64,000 nt of DNA from an uncultured Bacteroidia bacterium (GTDB lineage Bacteria > Bacteroidota > Bacteroidia > Bacteroidales > UBA932): contig CACZKE010000011.1 in NCBI GenBank assembly GCA_902781705.1, positions 26,168 to 90,167 of the forward strand, read 5' to 3'. Position numbers and translations under genes: made by a program. Shown in pieces: positions 6,829-48,900 of the stretch. Position 1 is the stretch's first letter. Each line of letters opens with the position of its first letter. The notes under the pieces are model-generated. The model was not told the origin of the DNA. It saw nothing but the letters and a program-made list of their open reading frames with translations, and did not search any database.

Positions 6829-9089
6829 CCCACAAGAGAACCCTCGTGACCTGCGCGCTTCCGTACGCCAACGGTCCCGTCCATATCGGCCACCTGGCCG
6901 GTGCCTACATCCCCGGTGACATCTACGTCCGCTACCTCCGGATGCGGGGCGAGGACGTCGTCTTCGTCTGCGGCTCCGACGAGCACGGCGTGCCCATCAC
7001 CATCAAGGCCCGCGCCCAGGGCGTCACCCCGCAGGACATCGTGGACAAGTACCACAGCGTGATGAAGGACGCCTTCACGGGCCTCGGCATCAACTTTGAC
7101 ATCTACTCCCGGACGACGTCGAAGGTCCATGACGAGAATGCGTCGGAGTTCTTCCGCAAACTCTACGACGACGACAAGTTCATCACCAAGGAGACCGAGC
7201 AGTATTACGACGAGGAGGCGAAGACCTTCCTCGCGGACCGTTACATCGTGGGCACCTGCCCCAAGTGCGGCAATCCCGGCGCCTACGGGGACCAGTGCGA
7301 GAAGTGCGGATCCACGCTGAGCCCGGAAGAGCTCATCGACCCCAAGTCCGCCCTGTCCGGCTCCACGCCCAAGAAGGTGAAGACCAAGCACTGGTACCTT
7401 CCGCTGGACCAGTACGAGCCCTGGCTCCGCGACTGGATCCTGGAGCAGCACAAGGAGTGGAAGACCAACGTCTATGGCCAGTGCAAGAGCTGGCTGGACG
7501 GCGGCCTGCAGCCCCGCGCCGTCTCCCGCGACCTGGACTGGGGCGTCCCCGTCCCTGTCGACGGTGCCGAGGGCAAGGTCCTCTACGTCTGGTTCGACGC
7601 CCCCATCGGCTACATCTCCAACACCAAGGAACTCCTCCCTCAGAGTTGGGAGAAGTGGTGGAAGGACCCGGAAACCCGGCTGGTGCATTTCATCGGCAAG
7701 GACAACATCGTCTTCCACTGCATCGTGTTCCCGTCCATGCTCAAGGCCTACGGCGACTACATCCTCCCGGAGAACGTTCCGGCCAACGAGTTCCTGAACC
7801 TCGAGGGCGACAAGATCTCCACCTCCCGCAACTGGGCCGTCTGGGTCCACGAGTACGAGGAGCAGTTCCCGGGCCAGGAGGACGTCCTGCGCTACGTCCT
7901 GACGGCGAACGCCCCGGAGACCAAGGACAACGACTTCACCTGGAAGGACTTCCAGCAGCGCAACAACTCCGAGCTCGTGGCCGTGTTCGGCAACTTCGTG
8001 AACCGCGCCGTCGTCCTCACGCACAAGTACTTCGGCGGTCTCGTCCCGGAGAACCGGAAACCCGAAGCCATTGACGCCGAGACCCTTGCCTCCATCGTCC
8101 CCTGCAAGGAGGCCCTGGAGAAATACGTGGAGACCTTCCACTTCCGCGAGGCCCTGAAGGAGGCGATGAACATCGCCCGCATCGGCAACAAGTACATCTC
8201 CGACATGGAGCCCTGGAAGGTGGCGAAGACCGACATGGACCGCACCGCCTCCATCCTCTACACCTGCCTCCAGATCTGCGCCGACCTCGCCATCGCCTTC
8301 GAGCCCTTCACCCCCTTCAGCGCCGAGAAACTCCGCACGATCCTCCGCGTGGGCCTCGACGCCGGCACCGACCACCGCGCCGGCGAAGGCACCCCGACGG
8401 AGAACTTCTACAAGCCGGGCGAGGGCAAGGCCCTGCATACGCGAGATTTCTCCGCGCGGCCTGACGGCCTTGGTCGAAATGACAATGGTCTTGTCATTTC
8501 GAGCGAAGCCTCCTCTGTCATTTCGAGCGGAGCCGAAGGCGGAGTCGAGAAATCTATCGTCCTCCGCTGGGACATGCTCGGCACCCCCGAACTCCTGCCC
8601 GCCGGGCACGCCCTGGGCGAGTCCGTCCTCCTGTTCCAGAAGATCGAGGACGCCGTCGTGGATGCCCAGATCGCCCGCCTCCAGGCCATCAAGGCCGAGC
8701 GCGAAGCCGCCGAGGCCGCCAAGGCCGCTGCGGAAGCCGCGAAGAAGGTAGAGCCGCAGAAGGAGGAAGTGTCCTTCGACGATTTCGGCCGCATGGACAT
8801 CCGCACCGCCACCGTCCTGGAGGCCGAGCGCGTCCCCAAGACGGACAAACTCCTGAAACTCACCATCGACACGGGCATCGACACCCGGACCATCGTCTCC
8901 GGCATCGCGGAGTACTACAGCCCCGAGGACATGCTGGGCAAGCAGATCTGCATCCTGGCGAACCTCGCCCCGCGCAAGATCCGCGGCATCGAGTCCAAGG
9001 GCATGATCCTCATGGCCAAGCAGGGCGACGGCAAGATGCGCTTCATCACCCCGCAGGAAGCCGTCACCAACGGCGCCGTCATCGGCTGA
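6825..9089 (+). CDS. metG: methionyl-tRNA synthetase with an in-frame palindromic insert
   Basis: A 754-residue class I synthetase charging tRNA-Met. The HIGH motif is in [10 protein letters not shown], zinc-binding cysteines are in [18 protein letters not shown], and the KMSKS equivalent is [11 protein letters not shown]-terminal EMAP-II-like tRNA-binding domain starts at [19 protein letters not shown]. Residues about 540-577 come from an inserted palindromic repeat (8444-8555) near the junction of the anticodon-binding and C-terminal regions. The start at [17 protein letters not shown] overlaps the dnaG stop; the same frame is open far upstream, but that is only a GC-rich shadow. Confidence 0.95.
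8444..8555 (+). repeat. palindromic insert in metG (family A)
   Basis: A 112-nt segment bounded by AGATTTCTC (8444-8452) and its complement GAGAAATCT (8547-8555). It holds an inverted left unit (to about 8484), a partial copy (from 8491) and a complete 40-nt unit (8516-8555) that begins TGTCATTTCGAG and ends GTCGAGAAATCT. It is translated in frame as [13 protein letters not shown] at its right end. The same 40-nt unit occurs in dnaX, lptB and ileS. Confidence 0.9.
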
Positions 9090-9130
9090 CCGTCCCGGCT
9101 AACTGCTTGATACATAGTGTGCTAATAACT

Positions 9131-9158
9131 ATTCCCTGGTGCAGATGTACCAGGGAAT
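9131..9158. terminator. bidirectional terminator between metG and the SPFH gene
   Basis: Arms ATTCCCTGGT (9131-9140) and ACCAGGGAAT (9149-9158) are perfect, extended by two inner pairs. ATTGTTT follows on the plus strand. The loop-proximal core (CCCTGGT..TGTACCAGGG) is nearly the same as in the terminator at 18020-18053. Confidence 0.75.
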
Positions 9159-9199
9159 ATTGTTTAACCCGTTGGGATAGAAATACTTAGGCGAGACGC

Positions 9200-10072
9200 C
9201 TATTTGCTCAAGTTGATGAACGGAAGGGCGTTGGAGCCGTTGTAGGTCGGAAGTTCGCCGTTCCACTTCTCGATGGCGTACTGCTGGACGATGAGCCCGT
9301 TCAGGGAGGCCGCGACCACGCGGTTGTAGTAGGCCTCGCCGTCACCCTGGATCTTCAGGGCTTCGGCCTCACCCTGGGCCTTGGCGATGGCGATCTTCGC
9401 CTCGGCCTCGGCTTCCTTCACCTTGTTTTCCGCCTTGAGGGCGTTCTGGACCGCTTCGTTCTTCGCATTGATGGCCTCGGTCAGGGAAGCCGGCGGATCG
9501 ATCTTCGTCGTGAACTCGCGGACGATGAACCCTTCGCGGTTCATGGATTCGTCCAGACGGGCGCGGACCTCGGTCTCGAACTTGGCGCGGTTGGCCATGA
9601 GTTCGTCGGACGTGTAGTTGTTCGCGCAGGTACGGTAGGCCTCGAAGATGCAGGTGTTGATATAGCCCATTTCCAGTTCCCGGACCGGTTTGCGGTATTT
9701 CACGAAGATGTCGACGGCCTTGTTCTCGTCGATCTGGTAGGCCAGGGTCGGGGTCATGGAGAAGATGGCCGCATCCTTCGGGTTCACCGTGAACGGATCA
9801 TAGGTGACTCGCTGGATATAAGTAGGATACTCGAAGATACTTTCCGTGATGGGGTTGTACCACACCCAGCCGCGGCAGGTGCCTTCCACGCCGCCCTTGA
9901 GTTCGGAGTTGGACGACCATTTCTTGAAACGGATACCCACCGACGCGGAGTCGATGGTCGTGCAGCAGGATGCCATCAGGATGATGGCGAGGACAGTGAC
10001 GCCCAGGGAAATCCAGGTGGCCTTCCCCAGTTTGCTTCCCCTGCGGGGATTGACGGTTTTGGTGGCTTGCAT
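9200..10072 (-). CDS. SPFH/band 7 domain membrane protein
   Basis: A 290-residue protein with an N-terminal transmembrane segment (SLGVTVLAIILMASCC), a prohibitin/SPFH domain (about 45-210), then a charged coiled-coil rich in Ala, Glu and Lys (KAENKVKEAEAEAKIAIAKA) typical of band 7 proteins. It probably forms membrane-associated oligomers that organise proteases or membrane microdomains. The double Cys after the hydrophobic segment could be a lipobox. The ATG at 10072 was chosen because the family alignment starts here. It lies 11 nt downstream of the M16 peptidase gene on the same strand. Confidence 0.85.
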   Translation of the reverse strand: MQATKTVNPRRGSKLGKATWISLGVTVLAIILMASCCTTIDSASVGIRFKKWSSNSELKGGVEGTCRGWVWYNPITESIFEYPTYIQRVTYDPFTVNPKDAAIFSMTPTLAYQIDENKAVDIFVKYRKPVRELEMGYINTCIFEAYRTCANNYTSDELMANRAKFETEVRARLDESMNREGFIVREFTTKIDPPASLTEAINAKNEAVQNALKAENKVKEAEAEAKIAIAKAQGEAEALKIQGDGEAYYNRVVAASLNGLIVQQYAIEKWNGELPTYNGSNALPFINLSK

Positions 10073-10083
10073 ATGGATAGCGT

Positions 10084-11361
10084 TTACAGGTAGATCAAGC
10101 GTGAAAGGCTTGCCGGATCGAAGAGCCGGCGGGCCATGGCCTGCAGGGCCTCGGGCGTCACGGCTTCGATGCGGGCGCGGGTCTCGGCGGAGGAGTCGAT
10201 GCGGCCCCACGAGAGGAGGGACTTGCCCATGGACAGGCACTGCGCCTCCCCGCTGGCGGAAGAAATGGCGAGTTGGCCGAGGAGTTGCCGTTTCGCGGCC
10301 TTCAGGAACCGTTCCGACAGCGGCACTTCCCGCAGGCGCTCCAGGATCTTGTCCAGCGCCTTGAGGCAGCGCTCCAGGTTGGGCTTGTCGCAGCCGAAAC
10401 TGATGGCGGCGATGCCCGTATCGGCGTACTGCGTATAGGAACACTCCACCCCGTACACCCAACCGTTCTTCTCGCGCAACTCTTTATTGAGCAGGGAGTT
10501 CGATGCCGGCCCGCCCAGGATGTTGCATAGCACGGCCGCGGTGATCCGGTCCTCCTCCTCATACAGCGACGGCGCCCGGTTGCCGATCACGGCGTTCACC
10601 TCGTGGTTGCGTTTGTCCACGGTTTTGTCGAATGGGGGAAAAGAAGGCGCGGCGGGTGCGGCAGGGCATACCCTTTCCGGAGCATATGCCCGTATTGGGT
10701 CGCGAAGCGACGCGGAGGAAAGGGTATGTCCTGCCGCACCGAAAACGCGTTCAGACAGGTGAATGATCCGCTTCTCCAGCACTTTCTCATCGATATCCGC
10801 GACGACCGTGAAAGCCATGCGGTCCGGGGTGAAGAAGGTGCGGACGAAACGGCGGAGGTCCTCCGGCGTGATGCGTCTGACGGAGGCGGTGGTGCCCAGG
10901 ATGGGATTGCCCAGCGGATGGCCTTCGAAGAGCATGCCCTCGAACCGGTCATAGACGTCTTCCACCGGGTTGTCCTTGTAGGAGATGATTTCGTCCAGGA
11001 CTACGCCCCGTTCGGTTTCGATCTCGTCGTCCGGGAAAGTGGGTTCCGTCGCCAGTTCAAAGAGGAGCCGGGCGGCCTTGCCGAGGTCCTCCTTCAGGAC
11101 GGTGGCATGCAGAACGATTTCCTCCTTGGTCGTGTAGGCATTGAGCTCTCCGCCCAGACGGTCCAGGTAACTGCCGATCACCGAGGCACTTTTGCGCTTC
11201 GTACCCCGGAAGATCGTGTGTTCGGTGAAATGGGCGATACCGCCCCGGAAACCGGCTTCGTCCCGGGTCCCGCAGCGGATGCTCAGGGCGCACCAGCCCA
11301 CGGAAGATGCGCTTCTCCGGACGGCGTAGCGCAGTCCGGAAGGTGCCGTGCCGCTCCGCAT
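10084..11361 (-). CDS. M16 family zinc peptidase with a palindromic insert
   Basis: A 425-residue pitrilysin-family protease. The inverted zinc-binding motif HxxEH is intact (HFTEHTIFRG), with the distal glutamate in ETERGVVLDEIISYKDNP, so this is a catalytically competent M16 subunit rather than the inactive partner. Residues about 208-236 derive from a large palindromic insert (10656-10739) giving GHTLSSASLRDPIRAYAPER, placed in the linker between the two halves. The start ATG overlaps the stop of the upstream gene by one base (TAATG), so translation is probably coupled. Confidence 0.88.
   Translation of the reverse strand: MRSGTAPSGLRYAVRRSASSVGWCALSIRCGTRDEAGFRGGIAHFTEHTIFRGTKRKSASVIGSYLDRLGGELNAYTTKEEIVLHATVLKEDLGKAARLLFELATEPTFPDDEIETERGVVLDEIISYKDNPVEDVYDRFEGMLFEGHPLGNPILGTTASVRRITPEDLRRFVRTFFTPDRMAFTVVADIDEKVLEKRIIHLSERVFGAAGHTLSSASLRDPIRAYAPERVCPAAPAAPSFPPFDKTVDKRNHEVNAVIGNRAPSLYEEEDRITAAVLCNILGGPASNSLLNKELREKNGWVYGVECSYTQYADTGIAAISFGCDKPNLERCLKALDKILERLREVPLSERFLKAAKRQLLGQLAISSASGEAQCLSMGKSLLSWGRIDSSAETRARIEAVTPEALQAMARRLFDPASLSRLIYL
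10656..10739. repeat. large palindromic insert in the M16 peptidase gene (family B)
   Basis: Two 23-nt arms (10656-10678 and 10717-10739) are inverted repeats with one mismatch. The 38-nt interior contains smaller palindromes: GCATATGC, CCCGTATTGGG and GTCGCGAAGCGAC. The segment is read in frame and interrupts an otherwise normal M16 protein. Confidence 0.85.
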
Positions 11362-12197
11362 TACCGCTTCTTGGACATGCGCCGCAGGTCCTCGGTGAGG
11401 AAGCCCGCGGGAGCGCGGTCCGTCATCTTGTGCTTGCGGATGTAATAGACGGTATCCGTATCTGCCTCGATGAGGAGTTTGTAGCACCAGGTGCCGGCGG
11501 CAACGGTGTAACTCACGAGGGTGTTGTAGGTCTTGTCGGTATAGACCTTGTCGGCCTCGTCGGCCTCGCAGAGGATGATGTCCTCGTCGAGATACTTCGC
11601 CTTGTCTTTTTCCGAGACGGCGGTGGAAAGGTCCTCCTGGGCCAGATAGATCCGCTTGATGCCGCCCTTCCTGTCGTATTTCTCGTTGAACCAGTTCATT
11701 CCGGAATACGCGGTGCGCTCGGATTCCATGGCGGCGAGGGCGAATTCCTGGATGCCCTTGACATAGGCGGAAAGGAATACGACCTCCCGGCCGATGCTGC
11801 CGTCCGCCGGGCAGAGCGGCAGGGAGATGACCTCGGTGCGGAGCGGGATGTTGTCGCCCGATTCGGCACCGCCTTTTTCCAGGGTCAGGAAGCGTACCAT
11901 GGGCTCCTCTTCGCCCTTGGCCTGTCCCTCGGTCACGAGGAGGAAATAGTAGGCGTCGGAACCTTTGAGGGAATTGTATTCCGCGGCGGAGCAGAACTCG
12001 AAGGGGGAGGCGGTCCATAGTTGGACCACTTCCTGCCGCAGGGCACCGTCCAGGACATCCCCACCGGCCATCACGACCTTCGTAATCTTATCGGTAAAAT
12101 CGGAAAACAGGTGTTTCCGGGTGGTCACCTTTCCCTGTTGGGCAAAGAGACCCGCGCTCACGAGAAGGAGCGCCAGTGCTGTCATCAATCGCTTCAT
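11361..12197 (-). CDS. secreted protein of unknown function
   Basis: A 278-residue protein with a signal peptide (MKRLMTALALLLVSAGLFA, cleavage near AQQ). No catalytic motif is recognised. The mature part has many aromatic and acidic residues and ends in a basic tail RRMSKKR. It begins a three-gene minus-strand unit with the M16 peptidase and SPFH genes, which suggests an envelope role. Confidence 0.75.
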   Translation of the reverse strand: MKRLMTALALLLVSAGLFAQQGKVTTRKHLFSDFTDKITKVVMAGGDVLDGALRQEVVQLWTASPFEFCSAAEYNSLKGSDAYYFLLVTEGQAKGEEEPMVRFLTLEKGGAESGDNIPLRTEVISLPLCPADGSIGREVVFLSAYVKGIQEFALAAMESERTAYSGMNWFNEKYDRKGGIKRIYLAQEDLSTAVSEKDKAKYLDEDIILCEADEADKVYTDKTYNTLVSYTVAAGTWCYKLLIEADTDTVYYIRKHKMTDRAPAGFLTEDLRRMSKKR

Positions 12198-12213
12198 AGT
12201 CGAACTCTTTCTG

Positions 12214-12243
12214 CAAAGATAGTGCTACGGCCCGGTTTTTCAA
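12214..12243 (-). promoter_or_regulatory. promoter for the secreted protein-M16-SPFH unit
   Basis: On the minus strand, TATCTTTG (12214-12221) has TTG (12241-12243) 19 nt upstream, a good Bacteroidetes sigma-factor match. It is divergent from the dnaX promoter. Confidence 0.75.
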
Positions 12244-12253
12244 AATAACTTCT

Positions 12254-12261
12254 TATCTTTG
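12254..12261 (+). promoter_or_regulatory. dnaX promoter -7 element, start codon almost adjacent
   Basis: TATCTTTG ends only 6 nt before the dnaX ATG at 12268. Transcripts from this element should have essentially no leader. Confidence 0.7.
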
Positions 12262-12267
12262 TAGATT

Positions 12268-14061
12268 ATGAGTGAGTACATCGTATCGGCACGGAAATAC
12301 AGGCCGGACTCCTTTGAGACCCTGCTGGGGCAGGATACCATCGCCCGGACCCTCTCGAACTCCATCAAGCGGGGACAGCTGGCCCACGCCTACCTGTTCT
12401 GCGGCCCGCGCGGGGTGGGGAAGACCACGACGGCGCGCATCTTCGCGAAGATGATCAACTGCGCGCATCCGGGGCCCGACATGGAGCCCTGCGGGGAGTG
12501 CGAGTCCTGCATCTCCTTCCAGGAAGGGCGCTCCTACTGCATCCACGAGCTGGACGCCGCGTCCAACAACTCCGTGGACGACATCAAGTCCCTGATGGAG
12601 AAAGTGCAGGTGCCGCCGCAGGTGGGAAAGTACAGCGTGTACATCATCGACGAGGTCCACATGCTGTCCCAGGCCGCCTTCAACGCCTTCCTCAAGACGC
12701 TGGAGGAGCCCCCGGCGCACGCCATCTTCATCCTGGCGACGACCGAAAAGCACAAGATCCTCCCGACCATCCTTTCCCGCTGCCAGACCTACGATTTCAA
12801 CCGCATCGGCATTCCCGACATGGTGAAGAACCTCCGCGGCATCGCGGCGAAGGAAGGGATCACCATCGACGACGAATCCCTCCATGTCATCGCCTCCAAG
12901 GCCGACGGCGCCATGCGCGACGCCCTCACCATCTTCGACCAGACCGTCGCCTTCTGCGGCACCGACGTCAAGTATGCCGATGTCATCCGGAACCTCAACG
13001 TCCTGGACCACGAATACAGCTTCTCCCTGGTCGATAACTTCCTCGCCGGCAACTACGGGGCCGCCCTCACCACCTTCGACGAGGTGCTCCGGAAGGGTTT
13101 CAACGCCTTGCATTTCGTCGCGGCGCTGAGTGCGCACCTGCGGGATCTCATCGTCGCCCGGACCGCCGGGCTGGAGGCCCTGCTGGAGCTTCCGGATTCC
13201 CTGAAACAGCGCTACCGCGAACAGGCCGGCCGCTGCCCGCTCCGCTTCCTGTACGACGCCCTCGGCGTCACCACCGCCTGCGAGACCGGCTACAAGGCCG
13301 CCGTGAATCCCCGGCTCCATATCGAGTTCGCCCTCATGAAACTCAGTTTCCTGATCCAGGCGCCGGAGCCTGTTGCGGGGGCTAAACCGGTTGCTACACA
13401 ACCTGTTGCACCTCAGCAGCCCGCTGACAAGACAGCCGTCGCTCCCAAGCCGGCTCCTGAGATTCCTTCACCTGCTCCGCAGGTTCGGAATGACAAACCG
13501 GAAGCCCCTGTCATTTCGAGCGGAGGCGAAGCCGGAGTCGAGAAATCTGCCGCCACCCCGGTGCAACCGACTCCTGAACGTCGCAAACGGACGCCGAAAA
13601 CCGGTTCCGCCCTGTCCATGAACGCCATCATGGACGAGAAGGAGGAGAAGCCCCAGGAGGAAGAGACCGTCGCCGTGGAGGAGACGTTGCCGGACAGAGC
13701 CGCCGTCCAGGAAGCCTGGAAGGCCCTCGTGGGCAAGTTCTCCGACCGGCCGCGCCTCGCGAACGCCCTCGCACAGGCGAAACTCCGCGAGGAGGAGGGC
13801 GAAGGCGTCAAGTCCGTGCACTTCTCCGTCTCCAATGCCGCGCAGAAGCAGTGGATCGAGGAAAAGATGCTCCGCGACCTGGAACGCCAGTTCCGGGAAC
13901 TGCTCTCCTGCCACAAGGTGAACCTCCATGTGGACGACATTCCCGAGGAGGATACCGGCGAGCGGGTCCCCTATATGCCCGAAGAGAAGGCGAAGGTCCT
14001 GATGGACACCAATCCCGAAGTCAGAGAACTCGTGGCCGCCCTCGGCCTCGATACCAAATAA
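12268..14061 (+). CDS. dnaX: DNA polymerase III subunit gamma/tau, with repeat insert
   Basis: A 597-residue clamp-loader ATPase. Walker A is in CGPRGVGKTTTARIFAKM, followed by zinc-binding cysteines (CAHPGPDMEPCGECESC), the Walker B region IIDEVHMLSQAAFNAFLK, and sensor ATTEKHKILPTILSRCQ. Domain III ends near residue 360. A Pro/Ala-rich linker carries the family A insert (residues about 398-427, VISSGGEAGVEKS). The C-terminal tau-like region (about 480-597) follows. The start at MSEYIVSARKYRPDSF is canonical and seems nearly leaderless. Confidence 0.95.
   Translation: MSEYIVSARKYRPDSFETLLGQDTIARTLSNSIKRGQLAHAYLFCGPRGVGKTTTARIFAKMINCAHPGPDMEPCGECESCISFQEGRSYCIHELDAASNNSVDDIKSLMEKVQVPPQVGKYSVYIIDEVHMLSQAAFNAFLKTLEEPPAHAIFILATTEKHKILPTILSRCQTYDFNRIGIPDMVKNLRGIAAKEGITIDDESLHVIASKADGAMRDALTIFDQTVAFCGTDVKYADVIRNLNVLDHEYSFSLVDNFLAGNYGAALTTFDEVLRKGFNALHFVAALSAHLRDLIVARTAGLEALLELPDSLKQRYREQAGRCPLRFLYDALGVTTACETGYKAAVNPRLHIEFALMKLSFLIQAPEPVAGAKPVATQPVAPQQPADKTAVAPKPAPEIPSPAPQVRNDKPEAPVISSGGEAGVEKSAATPVQPTPERRKRTPKTGSALSMNAIMDEKEEKPQEEETVAVEETLPDRAAVQEAWKALVGKFSDRPRLANALAQAKLREEEGEGVKSVHFSVSNAAQKQWIEEKMLRDLERQFRELLSCHKVNLHVDDIPEEDTGERVPYMPEEKAKVLMDTNPEVRELVAALGLDTK
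13461..13548 (+). repeat. palindromic insert in dnaX (family A)
   Basis: An inverted, diverged unit (13461-13495, beginning GATTCCTTC and ending GGAATGACA) faces a complete 40-nt unit (13509-13548, TGTCATTTCGAG to GTCGAGAAATCT) across a 13-nt gap. It is read in frame within the proline-rich linker of the tau subunit. Confidence 0.85.
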
Positions 14062-14070
14062 GTGTAAACC

Positions 14071-14937
14071 ATGAAGTTACGTGCTGAGAACCTGGTCAAG
14101 AAATACGGCGTCCGGACAGTCGTGAAGGGCGTCTCGATGGAAGTGAACCAGGGCGAGATCGTGGGCTTCCTGGGCCCCAACGGCGCCGGCAAGACCACCA
14201 GTTTCTATATGATCACCGGCCAGATCGTCCCGAATGAAGGGCGCATCTTCATCGACGATGACGAGCTTACCGGCCTTCCCATGTACAAGCGCTCCCAGAA
14301 GGGCGTGGGCTACCTGCCGCAGGAAGCGTCCGTCTTCCGCCAGATGTCCGTGGAGGACAACATCATGTCCGTCATGGAAATGACCCGGATGACGAAGGCC
14401 GAGCGGGAAGCCCGCCTGGAGCAGCTCATCGACGAGTTCAACCTTTCCAAGGTCCGCAAGTCCAAGGGCATCCAGCTCTCCGGCGGCGAGCGCCGCCGCT
14501 GCGAAATCGCACGCGCCCTCGCCGTGGACCCGAAGTTCATCCTCCTGGACGAACCCTTCGCGGGCGTGGACCCCATCGCCGTGGAGGATATCCAGTACAT
14601 CATCGCGAAACTCAAGTACCGCAACATCGGCGTCATCATCACCGACCACAACGTGGGCGAGACCCTCGCCATCACGGACCGCGCCTACCTCCTCTACGAG
14701 GGCACCATCCTCCAGGAAGGCACCCCGGAAGAACTCGCTGCCGATGAGGACGTCCGCACCAAGTACCTCGGCTCCGGCTTCGTCCTCAAGCGCTCCAAGA
14801 GCGTCGAGCGCGCCCGTCGCGAAGCCGAGGCCGCCCGCGCCGCAGAAGCCGAATCCGCCCGTGCCGCCGAGGTCCCCCCTGTCATTCCGAGCGAAGCCGA
14901 AGGCGGAGTCGAGAAATCTTCTGCCCCCTCCGACTAG
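14071..14937 (+). CDS. lptB: LPS export ABC transporter ATPase LptB
   Basis: A 288-residue ABC ATPase powering lipopolysaccharide transport to the outer membrane. Walker A ([16 protein letters not shown]), Q-loop region ([14 protein letters not shown]), signature ([15 protein letters not shown]), Walker B ([14 protein letters not shown]) and the H-loop ([11 protein letters not shown]) are all visible, and the DHNV context is typical of LptB. The core ends near residue 240. The rest is an Arg/Glu/Ala-rich helix followed by a repeat-derived tail ([13 protein letters not shown]) before the stop. It starts 10 nt after dnaX. Confidence 0.93.
14880..14919 (+). repeat. family A repeat unit at the 3' end of lptB
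   Basis: A single 40-nt unit with the same ends as the metG, dnaX and ileS copies (TGTCATTCCGAG to GTCGAGAAATCT). It is read in the same frame and lengthens the LptB C terminus. Confidence 0.88.
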
Positions 14938-15001
14938 TTTGGCACGCACCTTGCAATTAGCTAAGCCGGTTAGTTATTATAGTTGGTTTAGTTGATAAGG
15001 T

Positions 15002-15039
15002 ACAATAAAGGCGAGCCGCTTCCGGCCCGCCCTTATTGT
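15002..15039. terminator. bidirectional terminator between lptB and ispH
   Basis: Outer arms ACAATAA and TTATTGT enclose GGCG/CGCC and GCC/GGC pairs with small bulges and a short loop. It lies between convergent genes. The rest of the 185-nt spacer holds no other clear feature except a lone half-site of the second RAYT repeat at 15097-15106. Confidence 0.7.
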
Positions 15040-15122
15040 ATTATGGCTGGCCGGTTTCCGATCATCATATCTTGGGATTCAATTATATAGCTTTTCAGAG
15101 GTGCACAGGTTGAGAGAGACGC

Positions 15123-16699: not shown

Positions 16700-16722
16700 A
16701 ATCTTTCTCTCACTCAAGATTA

Positions 16723-16730
16723 CAAATGTA
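16723..16730 (-). promoter_or_regulatory. promoter -7 element for cmk-ispH
   Basis: The minus strand reads TACATTTG, matching TAnnTTTG, 23 nt before the cmk start. It is divergent from the response regulator gene, whose own best element is the imperfect GATATTTG at 16743-16750. Confidence 0.6.
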
Positions 16731-16769
16731 GAAAAAAGTTCCGATATTTGCATAAATGATTGTCTGTCT

Positions 16770-17918
<1,149 letters not shown>

Positions 17919-18019
17919 TCCCGGCCCTGTTTAATCCTGGATCAACGGCAGCAGAAAGCCGCGGCGGTCAGGATGATATAGGCGTCTTTCTTAACCGGTT
18001 GAATATCAGCACAATAACG

Positions 18020-18053
18020 AAAACTCCCTGGTACATTTGTACCAGGGAGTTTT
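18020..18053. terminator. strong bidirectional terminator between response regulator and efp
   Basis: Fifteen perfect base pairs (18020-18034 with 18039-18053) with loop ATTT, starting AAAACTCCCTGG and ending in TTTT. It suits both converging genes and shares its core with the metG terminator. Confidence 0.85.
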
Positions 18054-18092
18054 GCGTAACTATTTGAGCGTAAGTCTATTGACTGCGACGCT

Positions 18093-29209: not shown

Positions 29210-30541
29210 ATGCGGAAGGATTACCTGGAGTTGTCAGAATTGTTGTCCATGGTGAAGGAAGGGGTCGCGGACGCCTTTCCGGACAAGTATTGGGTGAAGG
29301 GGGAGATCAGTTCCTGGAGTCCCCGGGCCAACGGCCACTGTTACCTGAACCTCAGCGAGACGGTGCGGGGGAAGCAGGTGGCCGACATCCGCGCCATGAT
29401 CTGGAAATGGCATTTTCCGCAACTCAAGGCCTTTTTCGAGAAGGAGACCGGCCAGACGCTCCAGGCGGGGATCACGGTCCTCGTGCGGGTACAGGTGAAT
29501 TTCAGTGAACTGTACGGCATCTCCCTGTTTGTCGATGAAATCGACCCGGCCTTCACGGTCGGGGCCCAGGCCTTGGAGAAGAAGAAGGCCATCGAACGGC
29601 TTACCGCCGGGGGATACATGGACATGCAGAAGGAACTGGAACTCCCGCGGCTTCCGTACCGGCTGGCCGTGATTACGTCCAAGACCGCGGCGGGGTATGG
29701 CGACTTCCGCCGCCATCTGCTTGAGAATGAGGCGGGTTACGCGTTCCGGCTGGACCTGTACGAAGCCCTGATGCAGGGTGAGCAGGCGCCGGCCTCGATC
29801 ATCGCGGCCCTCCTGGAGGCGCAGGAGGAGGCGTACGACGCCATCCTCATCCTCCGCGGCGGCGGTTCGGAAATGGACCTTGCCTGTTTCGACGATTACG
29901 ACCTCGCCGTCGCGATTGCGACCTGTCCGGTGCCGGTGGTGACCGCCATCGGCCACGACCGGGATTTCCACATCGCCGACATGGTGGCCGGCCGCTATGT
30001 CAAGACCCCTACGGCCCTCGCGGACCTCTTCCTGGACATCTATGCCGATGAGGACGCCCTCCTGGACGCCCTGGAAAAGCGTGTGGGCGGCGCGGTGGCG
30101 GAACGTCTGTCGGCCATGGCCCGGCGTGTGGATGCGCTCTCGGCCCGGATCCGGGTGGGCCTCGTCGGAAAGGTCCATGCCGGGGAACAGGCGGTGGCTT
30201 CCCGCATCGCCCGCGTGCGGCTGGGGCTCACGCAGAAATTCGCCGCCCTTCAGCGGCTCTCCGACGCTGCGGCGCACCGGCTCCGGTTCGCCGCGACCGC
30301 CCGCATCGGCACGGAAATATCGAACCTCGCCCTGAAGGAAGCCCTCATCAAGGCCTCCGACCCCCGGAAGATCCTGGGACTGGGGTATGTCCTCGTGACC
30401 GGCTCCGACAACAAGGTCCTCAAGACCGTGGACCGGGTGGCGGTCGGAGACCGGATCGGCGTACGGTTCAGCGACGGCTCGCTTACGGCAAAGGTGGACG
30501 AGGTGTATGCGGAGGGCAGGGACAAGGCCGAGACGGCATAG
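29210..30541 (+). CDS. xseA: exodeoxyribonuclease VII large subunit
   Basis: A 443-residue nuclease subunit that with XseB degrades single-stranded DNA. The N-terminal OB-fold (WVKGEISSWSPRANGHCYLNL) is followed by the catalytic domain with ILRGGGSEMDLACFDDYDLA and TAIGHDRDFHIADMVAGRYVKTPTA, then a coiled-coil region and a C-terminal GYVLVTG segment. The start at MRKDYLELSELL was chosen because the promoter lies upstream of it and earlier codons are non-conserved. Confidence 0.93.
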   Translation: MRKDYLELSELLSMVKEGVADAFPDKYWVKGEISSWSPRANGHCYLNLSETVRGKQVADIRAMIWKWHFPQLKAFFEKETGQTLQAGITVLVRVQVNFSELYGISLFVDEIDPAFTVGAQALEKKKAIERLTAGGYMDMQKELELPRLPYRLAVITSKTAAGYGDFRRHLLENEAGYAFRLDLYEALMQGEQAPASIIAALLEAQEEAYDAILILRGGGSEMDLACFDDYDLAVAIATCPVPVVTAIGHDRDFHIADMVAGRYVKTPTALADLFLDIYADEDALLDALEKRVGGAVAERLSAMARRVDALSARIRVGLVGKVHAGEQAVASRIARVRLGLTQKFAALQRLSDAAAHRLRFAATARIGTEISNLALKEALIKASDPRKILGLGYVLVTGSDNKVLKTVDRVAVGDRIGVRFSDGSLTAKVDEVYAEGRDKAETA

Positions 30542-30590
30542 ATTTCTCGACAAGCTCGAAATGACAGAAGGGGACAAGCTCGAAATGACA
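30540..30590 (-). repeat. family A repeat remnants between xseA and xseB
   Basis: A shortened inverted copy (30540-30566: AGATTTCTCGAC then GCTCGAAATGACA) is followed by a second partial copy ending CTCGAAATGACA near 30589. They fill almost the whole xseA-xseB spacer and abut the xseB start. Confidence 0.75.
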
Positions 30591-30596
30591 AAAGAT

Positions 30597-41551: not shown

Positions 41552-41565
41552 TGCCCGAAGTAACC

Positions 41566-41593
41566 TTGTCATCCTGAACGAAGTGAAGGATCT
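41566..41593 (+). repeat. family A-like repeat variant abutting the ribF start codon
   Basis: A 28-nt element (TTGTCATCCTGAACG, then AAGTGAAGGATCT) ends at the base before the ribF ATG and takes up the place of its ribosome binding region. It is a diverged form of the repeat in metG, dnaX, lptB and ileS. Confidence 0.7.
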
Positions 41594-42571: not shown

Positions 42572-42592
42572 TCAAAAAAATCGCTATCTTTG
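42562..42592 (+). promoter_or_regulatory. greA promoter
   Basis: TTG (42562-42564), a 20-nt spacer and TATCTTTG (42585-42592), overlapping the ribF 3' end. It leaves a leader of about 95 nt before greA. Confidence 0.75.
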
Positions 42593-42605
42593 CAAACACT
42601 ACAGG

Positions 42606-42639
42606 CGGCGACCGGGTTCACGGTCGTCGGCTGCTTTTT
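42606..42639 (+). terminator. terminator-like hairpin in the greA leader
   Basis: A 9-bp stem with one G-U pair (42606-42614 with 42621-42629), loop GGTTCA, then GCTGCTTTTT. It lies between the greA promoter and the gene, so it would attenuate greA rather than end ribF only. A second small GC hairpin (CCCC..GGGG near 42647-42656) follows. Confidence 0.55.
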
Positions 42640-42693
42640 AGTTGCGCCCCCGAGGGGCCGGTAATGGATATAAACATACAAAAACGATAAACT

Positions 42694-43161
42694 ATGGCAA
42701 TCGAGTACATGACCCAGGCGGGTCTGGACAAGCTGAAGAAGGACCTGGCCGACGCATTGGCCCAGCGTCCGGTGATCTCCGCGGCCATCGCGGAGGCGCG
42801 GGAGAAGGGCGACCTCTCCGAGAATGCGGAATATGATGCTGCGCGCGATGCGCAGGGCCTCCTGGAGGTCAAGATCGCCCGCTTGAAGGAGAAAGTGGCG
42901 AACGCCCGCGTAATCGACGAGTCCAAACTCTCCGCCGACACCGTGCAGCTCCTCTCGAAGGTGCAGGTGGAGAACCTCGCCAACAAGATGAAGATGCAGT
43001 TCCAGATCGTGGGCGAGACCGAGGCGGACTTCTCCAAGGGCCTGCTGTCTGCATCCACCCCCATCGGCAAGGCCCTCATCGGCCACGCCAAGGGCGAGAC
43101 CGTGGAAGCGAAGGTCCCGAGCGGCATCATGAAATTCAAGATCCTGGACATTTCCCTGTAA
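42694..43161 (+). CDS. greA: transcription elongation factor GreA
   Basis: A 155-residue factor that rescues backtracked RNA polymerase. The N-terminal coiled coil carries the acidic tip (AREKGDLSENAEYDAARDAQ). The C-terminal FKBP-like domain ends with LIGHAKGETVEAKVPSG. It starts 5 nt before the HIT gene region and is expressed from a promoter with a structured leader. Confidence 0.95.
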   Translation: MAIEYMTQAGLDKLKKDLADALAQRPVISAAIAEAREKGDLSENAEYDAARDAQGLLEVKIARLKEKVANARVIDESKLSADTVQLLSKVQVENLANKMKMQFQIVGETEADFSKGLLSASTPIGKALIGHAKGETVEAKVPSGIMKFKILDISL

Positions 43162-43166
43162 AAGGT

Positions 43167-43571
43167 ATGGCTACCATTTTCACCCGTATCGCGAAGGGCG
43201 AGATCCCTTCCTACAAGTGCGCGGAGAACGAAGACTTCTACGCATTCCTGGACATCGCCCCGATGGCCAAGGGACACACCCTCGTCATCCCCAAGCATGT
43301 GGAGGACGACTATCTGTTCCACCTGGACGAGAAAACCTACGAAGGGCTGATGAAGTTCGCCCGTGAGGTCGCCATTGCCATCGGCAAGGCCGTTCCGTGC
43401 CAGCGCGTGGGTGTCGCCGTCCTCGGGATGGAAGTCCCGCACACGCACATCCACCTGGTGCCCCTCCAGAGCGAGGCGGACATGGACTTCCGCAAGCCCA
43501 AACTCCAGGTCGCCCCGGAGGAAATGAAAGCCATCGCCGACGCCATCCTTGCCGCGTATGAAAATCGTTAG
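43167..43571 (+). CDS. HIT family nucleotide hydrolase
   Basis: A 134-residue Hint-branch protein with the histidine triad HTHIHLVPL and the N-terminal FTRIAKGEIPSYK. It probably hydrolyses AMP-linked phosphoramidates. It lies 5 nt after greA and overlaps the next gene by 14 nt. Confidence 0.92.
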   Translation: MATIFTRIAKGEIPSYKCAENEDFYAFLDIAPMAKGHTLVIPKHVEDDYLFHLDEKTYEGLMKFAREVAIAIGKAVPCQRVGVAVLGMEVPHTHIHLVPLQSEADMDFRKPKLQVAPEEMKAIADAILAAYENR

Positions 43572-44670
43572 AATCCTCACTGCCGCCGCTGCGGCCCTTC
43601 TTCTCGCCGCCTGCGGCCCCAAGACCGTCATCGACGGCACCCTGAAGGACAAGGCCGATGCGCCTGTCATCGTCAAACTCCTGGATGTCAGCAAGTACCA
43701 GGTCCTGGATACCGTGAAAACGAACGCTTCCGGCGCCTTCTCCTACAACGTGGAACTCCCGTCCGAGAACCCGGAATTCATCTATCTGTTCTACGGTGAC
43801 CGGAAGGTGGCGTCGCTCCTGCTGAAGCCCGGCGACCGCGTGAAAGTGACGGCCGACACCCTGGGCAACTACTCCGTGGAAGGCTCCGACGAGTCCGTCC
43901 TCCTGCAGAATGTGGAGAACGAGTATGCGCAGTTCCTCGTGGACATGAACCGCTTCGCTTCCAGCGAGGCCCCGGATGCCAATGCCGAACTCTCCCGCCG
44001 CTATGTGGACTACTACCGCCGCAGTACCCGCTACGTCCTGGAGCACCCGAAGTCCCTGACCGCCGTGCCGGTCCTCTTCCAGCGGGTCAACGAGAACCTC
44101 GCCGTGTTCGACCAGCCCACCGACGGCATCCTCTTCCAGAGCATCAGCGACTCCCTGAAGACCGTCTATCCCGACTCCCGCTACGTGAAGGCCCTCGCCA
44201 AGGAGGCCTCCCGCCGCAACAACGCCTTGGAGATCGGCCACGCCCTGGAGACGGCCGGCGAGATCGGTTACTTCGACATCGACCTCCCGACGACCGACGG
44301 CTCCCGGAAGAAACTCTCCGAGGTGGACGCCAAGGTCGTGATGCTCTACTTCTGGGCGACGACCGCCGAGCAGAAGATGTTCAACATGGACGCCCTCATC
44401 CCGCTGTACGACGAATTCCACGGCCGTGGCTTCGAAATCTACGCCGTGTCCCTGGACGTGGACAAGACCGCCTGGGGCTCCGCCGTCCGGAATCAGCAAC
44501 TCCCTTGGGTCAATGTCTGCGACACCCGCGGGAACACCTCGCCTTACATCGGCATGTACGGCCTCACCAGCCTGCCTACGGCCTACTTCCTCGTGAACGG
44601 CGAACTGGACGGCACCGCGAACGTCACCGACGCCGCGTCCATCCGGAAGTACCTGAATTCCAGACTTTAA
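43558..44670 (+). CDS. thioredoxin-fold lipoprotein lacking the CxxC motif
   Basis: A 370-residue lipoprotein (MKIVRILTAAAAALLLAAC, acylated Cys19). It has an N-terminal DUF4369-like domain (about 25-130), a helical middle, and a C-terminal TlpA/AhpC-like thioredoxin fold. The redox site where WCxxC is expected reads YFWATTAEQKMFNMD, with no cysteines. The cis-proline segment SLPTAYFLVNG is kept. It is therefore probably not a disulfide oxidoreductase and may bind partners instead. It overlaps tsaB tail-to-tail by 4 bp. Confidence 0.8.
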   Translation: MKIVRILTAAAAALLLAACGPKTVIDGTLKDKADAPVIVKLLDVSKYQVLDTVKTNASGAFSYNVELPSENPEFIYLFYGDRKVASLLLKPGDRVKVTADTLGNYSVEGSDESVLLQNVENEYAQFLVDMNRFASSEAPDANAELSRRYVDYYRRSTRYVLEHPKSLTAVPVLFQRVNENLAVFDQPTDGILFQSISDSLKTVYPDSRYVKALAKEASRRNNALEIGHALETAGEIGYFDIDLPTTDGSRKKLSEVDAKVVMLYFWATTAEQKMFNMDALIPLYDEFHGRGFEIYAVSLDVDKTAWGSAVRNQQLPWVNVCDTRGNTSPYIGMYGLTSLPTAYFLVNGELDGTANVTDAASIRKYLNSRL

Positions 44671-45359
44671 AACAATTTCTTGCGACTGACCGTCGCGACG
44701 AAGTCCTTGAGATAGAACGGTTCGAAGTACGCTACGTCTTCGAACCGTTTTTCGTTATAGGCGACCTCGGCGAGGGGCGCCATGGCGCGTGCGTCGGGGT
44801 AGGCCTCGGCGAAGAAAGCGTTGCCGGAGGTGAGGACCTCGCGGCACTTGAGGGCGCCGTCGCCGATGAAAAGGACAGGTCCCTCGGCAAGCTGCGCCTC
44901 GAAACCGGAAGCGTCCACGACGACCGGCTCCGTCTCCGTGAGTTGCTGCCCGTCGGGGGTGAAAACGGCGGTGTACACTTCCATACGGCGGGCGTCGACC
45001 ATGGGCACGATGTAACGGCAACCTTCCGGGACCACGCCCAGCCGGTGCGCTTCGCTCACGAGCGTGTCCAGCGTGCCGACGGACAACAGGGGAATCCCGC
45101 CGCCGAAGCAGAGTCCCTTCGCCGTGGACACACCCACCCGCAGGCCGGTGTAGGAACCGGGGCCACGGCCCACGCAGACGGCATCCAAGTCCTTGACGGA
45201 CAGTCCTTTTTCCTGCAGGACTTCCTGCACGTAAGGGGCGGTGAGAGAGGCTTGCATACGGGGTTCGTCACACACGCGGAAAGCGGTGACGGTGCCGTCC
45301 TCCGAAAGGGCGGTGGAGAGCCGGGCGGTAGCGGTTTCGATGAGAAGGATCCTGGCCAT
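44667..45359 (-). CDS. tsaB: tRNA threonylcarbamoyladenosine biosynthesis protein TsaB
   Basis: A 230-residue ASKHA-fold protein (LLIETATARLSTALSEDG, VGRGPGSYTGLRVGVSTAKGL) that partners TsaD in t6A synthesis on tRNAs reading ANN codons. The length is standard. It is transcribed after cvpA (6 nt gap). Confidence 0.92.
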   Translation of the reverse strand: MARILLIETATARLSTALSEDGTVTAFRVCDEPRMQASLTAPYVQEVLQEKGLSVKDLDAVCVGRGPGSYTGLRVGVSTAKGLCFGGGIPLLSVGTLDTLVSEAHRLGVVPEGCRYIVPMVDARRMEVYTAVFTPDGQQLTETEPVVVDASGFEAQLAEGPVLFIGDGALKCREVLTSGNAFFAEAYPDARAMAPLAEVAYNEKRFEDVAYFEPFYLKDFVATVSRKKLF

Positions 45360-45365
45360 GGGCGA

Positions 45366-45860
45366 TCAGGCTTTGAAGAAGAGCCCCTTGAGGTAGGGGA
45401 ATACCAGATAAGACAGGTCCCGCAGGGAGGAATAGACGATGGATCCGTCCAGTACCTCGGGCTTCACGAGGCCGAACTTGAGGTTCACCGTGTCGAACAG
45501 GATGATGAAGACGCCGATGACGAGGGCGTTCACCGCCAGGGCGAACACCAGGCCCAGCGTCTTGTCCAGCCAGCCCAGCATGGCGATCTCGAATACTTTG
45601 GTGAGGAGTTTCGCCACCAGGACCACGGCCAGGCTGATCACGATGAGGATCGCCACGAAGGCAATGATGCTGAGCATCCGTTCGGAGACGTCCAGGTAGG
45701 GTTTGAGCCAGGTGCAGACGAGCGAAGAGAAGCGGAAGGCCGCCCAGACGCTCAGGACGACGCCCGCGAGGGCCAGGGCCTGCTCCAGGAAACCCTTTGA
45801 TAAACCGCGGATTATTCCGGGTACGAAGCAGACGAGGAGGATGATGTCGAGTGTTGCCAT
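45366..45860 (-). CDS. CvpA family membrane protein
   Basis: A 164-residue protein with four predicted transmembrane helices (LDIILLVCFVPGIIRGLSKG, ALALAGVVLSVWAAF, LSIIAFVAILIVISLAVVLV, FALAVNALVIGVFIILF). This matches the CvpA/colicin V production family, linked to envelope homeostasis. It starts the cvpA-tsaB unit. Confidence 0.88.
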   Translation of the reverse strand: MATLDIILLVCFVPGIIRGLSKGFLEQALALAGVVLSVWAAFRFSSLVCTWLKPYLDVSERMLSIIAFVAILIVISLAVVLVAKLLTKVFEIAMLGWLDKTLGLVFALAVNALVIGVFIILFDTVNLKFGLVKPEVLDGSIVYSSLRDLSYLVFPYLKGLFFKA

Positions 45861-45884
45861 TGTTGCGGAAAATGCTTATCTTTG
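45854..45884 (+). promoter_or_regulatory. ileS promoter
   Basis: TTG (45854-45856), 20 nt, TATCTTTG (45877-45884), a full consensus. The -33 box lies within the start of cvpA on the other strand. Confidence 0.75.
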
Positions 45885-45902
45885 CATCCTAAATTGCGCA
45901 TA

Positions 45903-45931
45903 CAAAATTAGACAAAAAATATGACATTCAA
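45903..45931 (-). promoter_or_regulatory. cvpA-tsaB promoter
   Basis: The minus strand reads TAATTTTG (45903-45910) with TTG (45929-45931) 18 nt upstream, inside the first codons of ileS. The two divergent promoters overlap so that their transcripts start across each other. Confidence 0.6.
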
Positions 45932-48900
45932 AGAATACAAGGGCCTTGATTTGGTCTCGACCGGAAACGCGATCCTTGAGAGATGGCTCGCCAACCGGGC
46001 TTTCGAGAAGTCCCTGGAGCTCCGTGAGGGCGCTCCGGAGTTCATCTTCTTCGAGGGTCCGCCGTCGGCCAACGGCATGCCCGGCATCCACCACGTGATG
46101 GCGCGTTCCATCAAGGATGCCGTGTGCCGCTACAAGACCCAGACCGGTTTCCAGGTCCACCGGCGCGCCGGCTGGGACACCCACGGTCTCCCGGTGGAAC
46201 TGGGCGTGGAGAAGAAACTGGGCATCACCAAGGCGGACATCGGCACGAAGATCTCCATCGGCGAGTACAATGCCACCTGCCGCAAGGAGGTGATGAAATA
46301 TACGAAGGAATGGGAAACGCTCACCCAGCGCATCGGCTACTGGGTGGACATGAACGATCCCTACATCACCTACGACAACCGCTACATCGAGACCCTGTGG
46401 TACCTCCTGAAGGACATCTACGACAAGGGGCTCCTGTACAAGGGCTACACCATCCAGCCCTATTCCCCGACCGACGGCACCGGCCTGAGTTCCCACGAAC
46501 TCAACCAGCCCGGCTGCTACAAGGACGTCACCGACACCACCGCCACCGTCCAGTTCCGGGTGATCCGGAACGAGGCCTCCGAAAAGGTCTTTGCGGATGG
46601 CGGCACGCCCGTGTACATCCTGGCCTGGACCACCACCCCGTGGACCCTGCCGTCCAATACGGCCCTCTGCGTGGGCCCCGGCATCGACTATGTCCTGGTG
46701 CGCTCCTTCAACCCTTACACCGGCGAACCCGCCGTGTACCTCCTGGCGGAGGCGCTCGTGGGCGCCTGGTTCAACCCCAAGGGTGCCGAGGCGCCGATGG
46801 AGGCCTATCAGAAGGGTGACAAGGTGGTCCCGTACCGGATCCTTCCTGAGAGATTCAAGGGCAGCGACCTCCTGGGCATCCGCTACGAGCAACTCATCCC
46901 GTGGTTCAAGCCCGACGGGGACGCCTTCCGCGTCATCCCCGGTGACTACGTGACCACCGAGGACGGTACCGGCATCGTCCACATCGCCCCCACCTTCGGT
47001 GCCGACGACAAGCGCGTCGCCGCCGCTTCCGGCATCGCCGCGATCATGCCCGTGGACAAGGACGGCAACCCGCAGGCGCAGGTGGACCGCCAGGGCCGCT
47101 TCTGCCGCCTGGAAGACCTGGATCCGGCCTATGCCGCCACGGTCGATCCATCCTATGCCCCCTATGCCGGCCGCTACACGAAGTCCGGCTTCAAGGAATA
47201 CTTCGAGCACGAGACGGAGGAAACCACCCTGGACGTGGACCTCTGCCTCATGATGAAGGCCGACGGCCGCCTGTTCCGCATGCAGAAGCATGTGCACAGT
47301 TATCCGCACAGTTGGCGGACGGACCGTCCGGTGCTCTACTACCCGCTGGATTCCTGGTTCATCAAGGCCTCGGCCGTGAAGGAGCAGATGGTCGCGCTGA
47401 ACAAGACCATCACCTGGAAGCCCGAATCCACCGGCACCGGCCGATTCGGCCAGTGGCTGGAGAACATCCAGGACTGGAACCTCTCCCGCAGCCGCTTCTG
47501 GGGCACCCCGCTCCCGATCTGGCGCACCGAGGACGGCAAGGAGGAAAAGTGCATCGGCACGGCCGCTGAGTTGTACAATGAACTCGAGAAAGCCGTCGCC
47601 GCCGGTATCATGAAGTCCAATCCGCTGAAGGACAAGGGCTTTGACCCGGCCGACATGAGCCTTGAAAATTACGACCGGATCGACCTGCACCGTCCCTTCG
47701 TGGACGAGATGTACCTCGTGTCCGATTCCGGCAAGAAGATGGTCCGCGAGAGCGACCTGATCGACGTCTGGTTCGATTCCGGTGCCATGCCGTATGCGCA
47801 GGAAGGCCTCCGCGGCCTCCACAGCGGCAAGTTCGGCGCCACGGCGGATTTCATCGCCGAAGGCGTGGACCAGACCCGCGGCTGGTTCTATACCCTCCAT
47901 GCCATCCACACGATGGTGAGCGGTACGCCGGCCTTCAAGCGCGTGATTTCCAACGGCCTCGTCCTGGACAAGAACGGCAACAAGATGAGCAAGCGCCTCG
48001 GCAACGCCGTGGATCCGTTCTACGCCCTGGACAAGTACGGGGCCGACGCCCTCCGCTGGTACATGCTCACCAACGCCGAGCCCTGGGACAACCTCAAATT
48101 CGACGAAAACGGGGTGGACGAAGTGCGCCGCAAGTTCTTCGGCACCCTCTACAATACCTACTCCTTCTTCGCCCTCTACGCGAACATCGAGGGCTGGACG
48201 CCCGCTGCCGAGACTTCTCCACGCGCTTCGCTTGGTCGAAGTGACAATGGCCCTGTCATTTCGAGCGGAGCCGAAGGCGGAGTCGAGAAATCTCTCCCCG
48301 AGATCGACCGCTGGATCCTCTCCCGCCTGAACACCCTTATCCGGGAAGTCCGCGCCGCCTACGAGGACTATGACATCAAGACCGCCGGCCGCCTCATCGA
48401 AACCTTCGTGTGCGACCATGTGTCCAACTGGTATGTCCGCCTGAACCGTTCCCGTTTCTGGAACGGTGATCCGCAGGCCTTCCAGACGCTGTATGATGTT
48501 CTCCTCGACGTCTCCATCCTCGCCGCCCCCATCGCGCCGTTCTTCATGGACCAACTCTATCTGGACCTCGGTGGCTCCTGCGAATCTGTCCATTACGTCC
48601 TCATGCCCGAGTCCGACCCTTCCGTCATCGACCCGGAACTGGAAGAGCGGATGGAACTCGCGCAGCAGGCCACGTCCATGGTGCTGGCCCTTCGCAAGAA
48701 GGTGGGCATTCCGGTGCGTCAGCCGCTCGGTAAGATGCTCGTCCCGGTCATCTCCGATGCCGTCCGCGCCCGGCTGGACGCGGTCAAGAACCTGATCCTC
48801 ACCGAGGTGAACGTGAAGGAGATGGAGTTCGTGGAGGACACCACCGGCATCATCACCAAGAAGATCAAGCCCAACTTCAAGACCCTGGGCAAGGTATATG

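What the first reader, a model, noticed from the sequence alone, without database searches (positions are those of the whole stretch)
8444..48293. In-frame palindromic repeat shared by metG, dnaX, lptB and ileS
The same 40-nt unit (TGTCATTTCGAG to GTCGAGAAATCT) is embedded in four protein genes: 8516-8555, 13509-13548, 14880-14919 and 48254-48293. In all four it has the same orientation and reading frame, adding V-I-S/P-S and E-x-G-V-E-K-S residues. All three forward frames of the unit are stop-free, so if frame were random four agreeing copies would have a chance of 1 in 27. In metG, dnaX and ileS it pairs with an inverted left unit, also in frame. The inserts sit in linkers or tails. This parallels Rickettsia palindromic elements, which spread through coding genes; I know of no described counterpart in Bacteroidales.
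Basis: partly seen in the sequence, partly recalled or inferred. Interest (0 to 1): 0.85.

Follow-up and report, generated by a model that had tools for sequence, protein, structure and literature searches.

The report
In-frame palindromic repeats in essential genes
A short palindromic DNA repeat has multiplied in a rumen-type bacterium and often sits inside conserved genes, nearly always read in one of its three possible frames, while sister species carry different palindromes in the same protein linkers; repeats inside genes are already known, but this frame preference and the swapping of repeat families look new.

Summary
In detail: the four units are at the stated places, plus one unlisted minus-strand copy. 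The genome has 83 exact right arms, against 0 to 20 in six congeners. Of 23 copies counted in sense inside genes or their tails, 20 use frame 0, V-I-S-S...V-E-K-S; with only stop-free frames allowed, 17 of 18 (P 4e-6). Dropping or adding the doubtful copies leaves P at 4e-5 or below. Among 13 hosts found in G201, 6 have no insert, 3 the same family, 4 another palindrome. Long units are genic in 23 of 39, short ones in 3 of 42. The same linkers (metG, murE, murB, aroA, dnaX, ileS) hold different palindromes in relatives. The element resembles the CGTC/TGTC superfamily, to which the literature assigns Rickettsia RPE-4 and RPE-6, but fails three of its described features (loop, tail, dimer type). 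No transposase is tied to it in the loci scanned. Intragenic repeats of this kind are in print, so this is a new variant of a known kind. Selection after insertion fits the frame preference; target-site bias or in-place family exchange is not excluded.

The parts
8444..8484 (-). inverted left unit of the metG insert
   Evidence: pair with the right unit folds as DNA with z -4.8
8492..8510 (+). tandem partial unit in metG, starting 24 nt before the full unit
8516..8555 (+). full unit in metG, frame 0, [13 protein letters not shown]
6825..9089 (+). metG; insert between the metG domain (aa 7-518) and metG_C_term (aa 620-752)
13487..13495 (-). remnant of an inverted left unit in dnaX
   Evidence: sequence; not in the G201 dnaX
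13509..13548 (+). unit in the dnaX linker, frame 0, VISSGGEAGVEKS
   Evidence: a diverged copy is in G201
12268..14061 (+). dnaX
14880..14919 (+). unit in the C-terminal tail of lptB, frame 0, [13 protein letters not shown]
   Evidence: a diverged copy is in the G201 lptB tail
14071..14937 (+). lptB; the LPS_export_lptB match ends at aa 238, unit at aa 270-283
48211..48246 (-). inverted left unit of the ileS insert
   Evidence: pair with the right unit folds as DNA with z -2.3
48254..48293 (+). unit in ileS, frame 0, [13 protein letters not shown]
   Evidence: pLDDT below 50 at aa 764-790 in a modest model
45921..49397 (+). ileS; insert between tRNA-synt_1 (aa 18-726) and Anticodon_1 (aa 796-936)
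30541..30591 (-). short-form copy (25 nt) with a tandem half; its outer end supplies the TAG stop of the + strand gene ending at 30541

Best explanation
The 40-nt unit is one half of a non-autonomous interspersed palindromic element that resembles the CGTC/TGTC superfamily, often present in genes as a tail-to-tail inverted pair of 84 to 165 nt. It has multiplied in this Bacteroidales species. Shown here: high copy number, pair form, sites without insert in relatives, in-frame carriage in conserved genes, and a strong preference for frame 0. Inferred: copies arise by insertion with an unknown mobiliser; insertions that break a gene are lost; those that add a multiple of 3 nt in a linker, loop or tail survive; among stop-free frames the one giving the small polar peptide [13 protein letters not shown] is tolerated best. 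The peptide is probably a passenger.
For: Right arms: 83 in G000; 13, 20, 2, 0, 1, 6 in G201, G203, G217, G200, G226, G118 (two of these genomes are under 90% complete). Sense copies: frame 0 in 16 of 19 internal and 4 of 4 tail copies (P 7e-6 for 16 of 19, 1.6e-7 for 20 of 23). Stop-free frames only: 17 of 18, P 4e-6. G203: frame 0 in 5 of 5 sense genic copies among its 20 right arms. Hosts over their curated cut-offs include metG, dnaX, lptB, ileS, metH, cysS, aroA, murE, truB, pbpC, rnfG. G201: 6 of 13 hosts without insert, 3 with the same family, 4 with another palindrome. Tandem arms in genes are spaced by multiples of 3 in 11 of 11 (from 7 loci), against 17 of 36 elsewhere. In the three units shared with G201 (dnaX, truB, lptB) the differences are amino-acid-changing and none is an indel (by eye).
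Against: No insertion event was seen; relatives are too diverged to show target duplications. Peptide selection is not separated from target bias: the seven ileS linkers with a recognised element end at one host codon. Frame 2 is used by 3 of 23. Doubtful copies: one in L091 has no gene call, and L109 (sense, frame 2, at the called start of a gene) was left out; with both mended the stop-free test gives 16 of 18 frame 0, P 3.7e-5 (where the label of that line misprints 17). In G118, G007 and G051 none of 40 copies has coding signal on both sides, so genic carriage is not general; the codon models there were trained by the method that failed for G201. Gene calls are home-made; L117 and L127 lie in gene calls but were classed 'other'.
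Confidence: 0.7

Rival explanations
1. Target-site bias, not selection, sets the frame: the element enters at a preferred short sequence that has a fixed frame in genes, or it replaces an older in-frame palindrome by recombination (in-place family exchange).
For: In ileS the right end falls on the same host codon in 7 of 7 linkers with a recognised element, of several families. In metG the right ends in G000, G201, G226 and G203 lie at the same place though the families differ (by eye).
Against: Two other long ileS linkers, L013 and L018, do not end there. In murE and murB the ends differ by one to a few bases between species (by eye). Six of 13 G201 hosts have no insert.
Confidence: 0.3
2. 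The inserted peptide is useful to the host, for example as a tuning or localisation tag.
For: Strong frame preference; many hosts are central genes.
Against: Relatives carry unrelated peptides in the same linkers or none; the shared units differ by amino-acid changes.
Confidence: 0.07
3. A classical REP moved by a RAYT (Y1 HuH transposase).
For: G000 has two Y1_Tnp genes, and a half unit follows the one on C16. In a congener, G022, a Y1_Tnp locus (L291) has three GTCATTTTGA repeats nearby, and L297 (G129) has one GTCATTCTGAGCG...GAAGAATCT copy.
Against: The two own genes are flanked by other palindromes. None of 21 scanned Y1_Tnp loci (of 40 matches) holds a full copy of this unit. PMC3733652 section 16 reports no transposase association for CGTC repeats.
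Confidence: 0.1
4. Annotation or assembly artefact.
Against: Eleven hosts pass curated model cut-offs, and other genomes show inserts at the same sites.
Confidence: 0.03

Closest known systems
CGTC-tagged palindromic repeats (PMC3733652)
   Same: [CT]GTC tag followed by AT; paired units; intragenic members known; described in Bacteroidetes; no transposase association
   Different: tag here nearly always TGTC; stem bulged and middle of the long form far beyond 4-5 nt; tail CTN, not CCA; pairs tail-to-tail, which that paper calls rare; a frame preference is not mentioned in the parts I read
Rickettsia palindromic elements RPE-4 and RPE-6
   Same: palindromic units inserted in frame in protein genes (PMC3733652)
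   Different: another phylum; sequences not compared here; Ogata 2002 was not held, so frame statistics there are unknown to me
GTAG REPs and REPtrons with RAYT (PMC3733652, PMC6006769)
   Same: interspersed, paired, sometimes inside genes; PMC6006769 reports REPs inside tnpA genes that keep the frame
   Different: no GT[AG]G tag and no flanking RAYT found here

Membership tests
CGTC repeat superfamily | terminal CGTC or a variant such as TGTC, then a stem starting AT | tested here: met
   base before GTCATTTCGA: T 150, C 4, G 1 of 155; the GTCAT itself was part of the search pattern
CGTC repeat superfamily | 8-9 bp stem with a 4-5 nt loop | tested here: not met
   three unit forms fold weakly as DNA, z +0.91, -0.89, +0.69, with at most a 4-bp stem in the short forms; the long form has a longer middle
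CGTC repeat superfamily | short unpaired tail, mostly CCA | tested here: not met
   after GTCGAGAAATC come TA 32, TG 20, TC 19, TT 11, CA 1 of 83
CGTC repeat superfamily | head-to-head pairs predominant | tested here: not met
   19 of 19 neighbouring opposite-orientation left arms within 120 nt are tail-to-tail
CGTC repeat superfamily | no association with transposase genes | tested here: inconclusive
   no full unit at 21 of 40 Y1_Tnp loci; other transposase types were not searched
CGTC repeat superfamily | intragenic units occur | tested here: met
RAYT-mobilised GTAG REP | GT[AG]G tag and a RAYT flanked by the repeat | tested here: not met
Rickettsia palindromic elements | in-frame insertion in protein genes | tested here: met
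Rickettsia palindromic elements | sequence relationship to RPE families | not tested
   no Rickettsia sequence was fetched

The most novel reading that the evidence does not exclude
Linkers of essential proteins in this genus act as exchangeable docking sites: the palindrome in a linker is replaced in place by whichever family is expanding in that species, with the host boundary kept, and the long unit is a protein-compatible form of the element that spreads through genes.
Probability: 0.25. Interest if true: 0.8.

Novelty: new variant of a known kind. Interest (0 to 1): 0.62.

Why it matters
How protein-coding palindromic elements spread, and whether their reading frame is chosen, is an open question. 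Here one genome offers 23 sense copies with a measurable frame preference, a congener repeats it, and others offer empty or differently filled versions of the same sites. Insertion, frame selection and family replacement become directly testable. It also explains odd insertions in universal proteins of these Bacteroidales.

Tried and rejected
RAYT as driver: two Y1_Tnp genes in the genome, both beside other palindromes. Y1_Tnp matches occur in 16 of 20 genomes and do not follow copy number by eye; G200 has neither. Replication outside the close relatives failed: none of 40 copies in G118, G007 and G051 is genic by the two-flank score. In G201 only truB (shared) is a sense internal copy and one is antisense, of 13. 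A codon model for G201 was mistrained on antisense ORFs and replaced by the G000 model. Palindromic structure as a general property of these linkers was not found: z of -2 or less in 5 of 19 metG and 8 of 45 ileS linkers. One search timed out and was rerun on 46 sequences. One search missed most metG linkers and was redone. One search failed for metG of G201, which was read by hand; citC had no G201 match.

Papers: PMC3733652, passages, section 4 part 1 of 4, sections 15 and 16, section 17 part 1 of 2. PMC6006769, passages only. All others as search listings. I saw no report of a frame preference or of family exchange at one linker in those six searches, which cover open-licence papers only.
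Full report
What is in the window. The hosts are metG, dnaX, lptB and ileS. All four are read V-I-S/P-S ... G-V-E-K-S. A fifth, short copy lies on the minus strand at 30541-30565 with a tandem half beside it.

Genome-wide. The window lies in a 3.07-Mb genome of 43 contigs. TGTCATTTCGAG occurs 107 times and GTCGAGAAATC 83 times; the reversed patterns do not occur. Named relatives by IleS are uncultured Bacteroidales, many from ruminants, and some Candidatus Cryptobacteroides (best 80 of 589). TGTCATTTCGAGCG is found in 13 of 199 genomes of the family, this one included: 68 here, 16 in G007, 10 in G118, 4 in G051, 1 in each of nine; the reversed control has one hit, in G059. Right arms number 13, 20, 2, 0, 1 and 6 in G201, G203, G217, G200, G226 and G118, with one reversed hit each in G203 and G118.

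Anatomy. Single units fold weakly as DNA; the two typed inverted pairs fold better than shuffles (ileS z -2.3, metG z -4.8). All 19 neighbouring opposite-orientation left arms within 120 nt have their TGTC ends facing inward. Full units are 25-26 nt (short) or 36-40 nt (long) between the arms' ends and differ in the middle. Of 83 right arms 39 belong to long units, 42 to short ones and 2 have no left arm. Long units are genic in 23 of 39, short ones in 3 of 42 (Fisher P 6e-7). 'Genic' there means coding signal on both flanks, or a C-terminal tail; three loci (one copy in L091, L084, L143) were set by hand, and L117 and L127, which lie in gene calls, were left as 'other'. The outer end TAGATTTCTCGAC occurs 32 times in the fetched own stretches and supplies the TAG stop of 14 called genes.

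Frame. Nineteen copies lie in sense inside ORFs: 16 in frame 0, 3 in frame 2, none in frame 1. Four more lie in C-terminal tails, all frame 0. Binomial P against 1/3 is 7e-6 for the 19 and 1.6e-7 for all 23. Since the inverted pairs usually leave two stop-free frames, the test was repeated with open frames only. Set aside: L124 (right arm only), L084 (gene ends in the unit), L129 (one open frame), L096 and L146 (frame 0 not open). Of the other 18, 17 are frame 0, P 4e-6 (open-frame numbers entered by hand; L143 stands under 'other' there). One L091 copy (3731-3768) has no gene call; without it 16 of 17, P 8e-6. L109, sense and frame 2 at the called start of a gene, was not counted; with L109 in and that L091 copy out, 16 of 18, P 3.7e-5. 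Five internal copies are antisense; by eye three of those inserts (dapF, murB, miaA) also end with a sense partner reading V-E-K-S. Tandem arms in genes are spaced by a multiple of 3 in 11 of 11 cases, from 7 loci, and in 17 of 36 elsewhere, P 0.0012 (counted by hand; P). In G203, 5 of 5 sense genic copies are frame 0, of 20 right arms; L255 and L259 would add two more by that genome's own model. Own and G203 copies together give 25 of 28, P 1e-9. In G201, truB, shared with the own genome, is the only sense internal copy of 13. In G118, G007 and G051 none of 40 copies has coding signal on both sides.

Sites in relatives. Fourteen hosts were compared, with metG of G201 read. In G201, 13 hosts were found: aroA, cysS, miaA, dapF, an msbA-like gene and dcp have no insert; dnaX, lptB and truB carry the same family; metG, metH, murE and murB carry another palindrome, judged by eye. 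Nucleotide alignments of nine hosts show well conserved flanks around the inserts. The metG linker holds different palindromes in G000, G201, G203, G217, G226, and G224 with G219; several other metG linkers hold none. Copy number was checked for three of these families. GTCATACCGAGC: 26 in G203, 1 in G217, 0 in five others, with places in the G203 metG and murE linkers. CAGGGTCGCGAAGCGACG: 12 in G217, 2 in G203, 0 in G000 and G201, with places in the G217 metG and dnaX linkers. CGTCATGCCCGGC: 30, 28, 11, 10, 8, 1 and 0 in G217, G226, G201, G203, G000, G118 and G200, with places in the G201 metG and murB and the G217 aroA linkers. In ileS, six of 80 named relatives carry a recognised element (chosen by eye); like the window's, each ends at the codon before CTN-NCN-GAR. 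L013 and L018, long linkers of other sequence, do not; L051 has a repeat-like remnant and was counted as plain.

Place in the protein. The ileS insert lies between the catalytic and anticodon domains. An AlphaFold2 model from 28 sequences (mean pLDDT 62, 374 residues below 50) has residues 764-790 as low-confidence coil between two helices. The metG insert lies between two domains and the lptB one in the tail; the dnaX one follows domain III.

How it works. Shown: copy number, pairing, in-frame carriage, frame preference, absence in relatives. Inferred: insertion by an unknown route and loss of harmful insertions. Both own Y1 transposase genes carry other palindromes. Of 21 Y1_Tnp loci scanned none holds a full unit, but L291 has three GTCATTTTGA repeats and L297 one related GTCATTCTGAGCG copy, so a link of related repeats to such enzymes is not excluded. 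The units shared with G201 differ by amino-acid changes without indels (by eye), which fits a tolerated passenger. The common boundaries in ileS and metG suggest a preferred target or in-place exchange; I cannot tell which.

What is known. PMC3733652 sorts such repeats into GTAG and CGTC superfamilies, notes TGTC variants, Bacteroidetes members and intragenic units, equates intragenic R. conorii CGTC repeats with RPE-4 and RPE-6, and finds no transposase association for CGTC repeats. PMC6006769 reports REPs inside tnpA genes that keep the frame. So the kind is known. The frame preference, the long genic form and the species-specific families at shared linkers are the new points, as far as the listed searches show.

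Noticed in passing
window 62443-63360 (-), flanks about 62266-62433 and 63511-63860: A Y1_Tnp (RAYT-like) gene flanked on both sides by several copies of another palindrome, GAGGTGCACC...GGTGCACCTC, a REPtron-like layout.
   Followed up: partly
L128:1511-2374 (contig C16): Second Y1_Tnp gene, flanked by GCTTTGCG/CGCAAAGC palindromes and followed by a half unit of the element.
   Followed up: partly
window 30539-30541 and 13 other genes: The outer end of antisense copies supplies the TAG stop of the neighbouring gene: 14 of 32 TAGATTTCTCGAC sites.
   Followed up: partly
L110:4304-6373: An msbA-like transporter gene with four units in tandem at exact 39-nt spacing, adding repeats like VISSGGEAKEVPS.
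   Followed up: no
L127:2906-4552 and L124:1561-3813: Apparent gene fusions (amgK-like with rapZ-like; aroD with aroA) that carry repeat inserts.
   Followed up: no
L210:1-1249 (G201 metG): Apparent frame break in metG shortly before the linker, possibly an assembly error.
   Followed up: no
L291 and L297: Y1_Tnp loci of two congeners with GTCATT-type repeats nearby, a possible lead to a mobiliser of related repeats.
   Followed up: no
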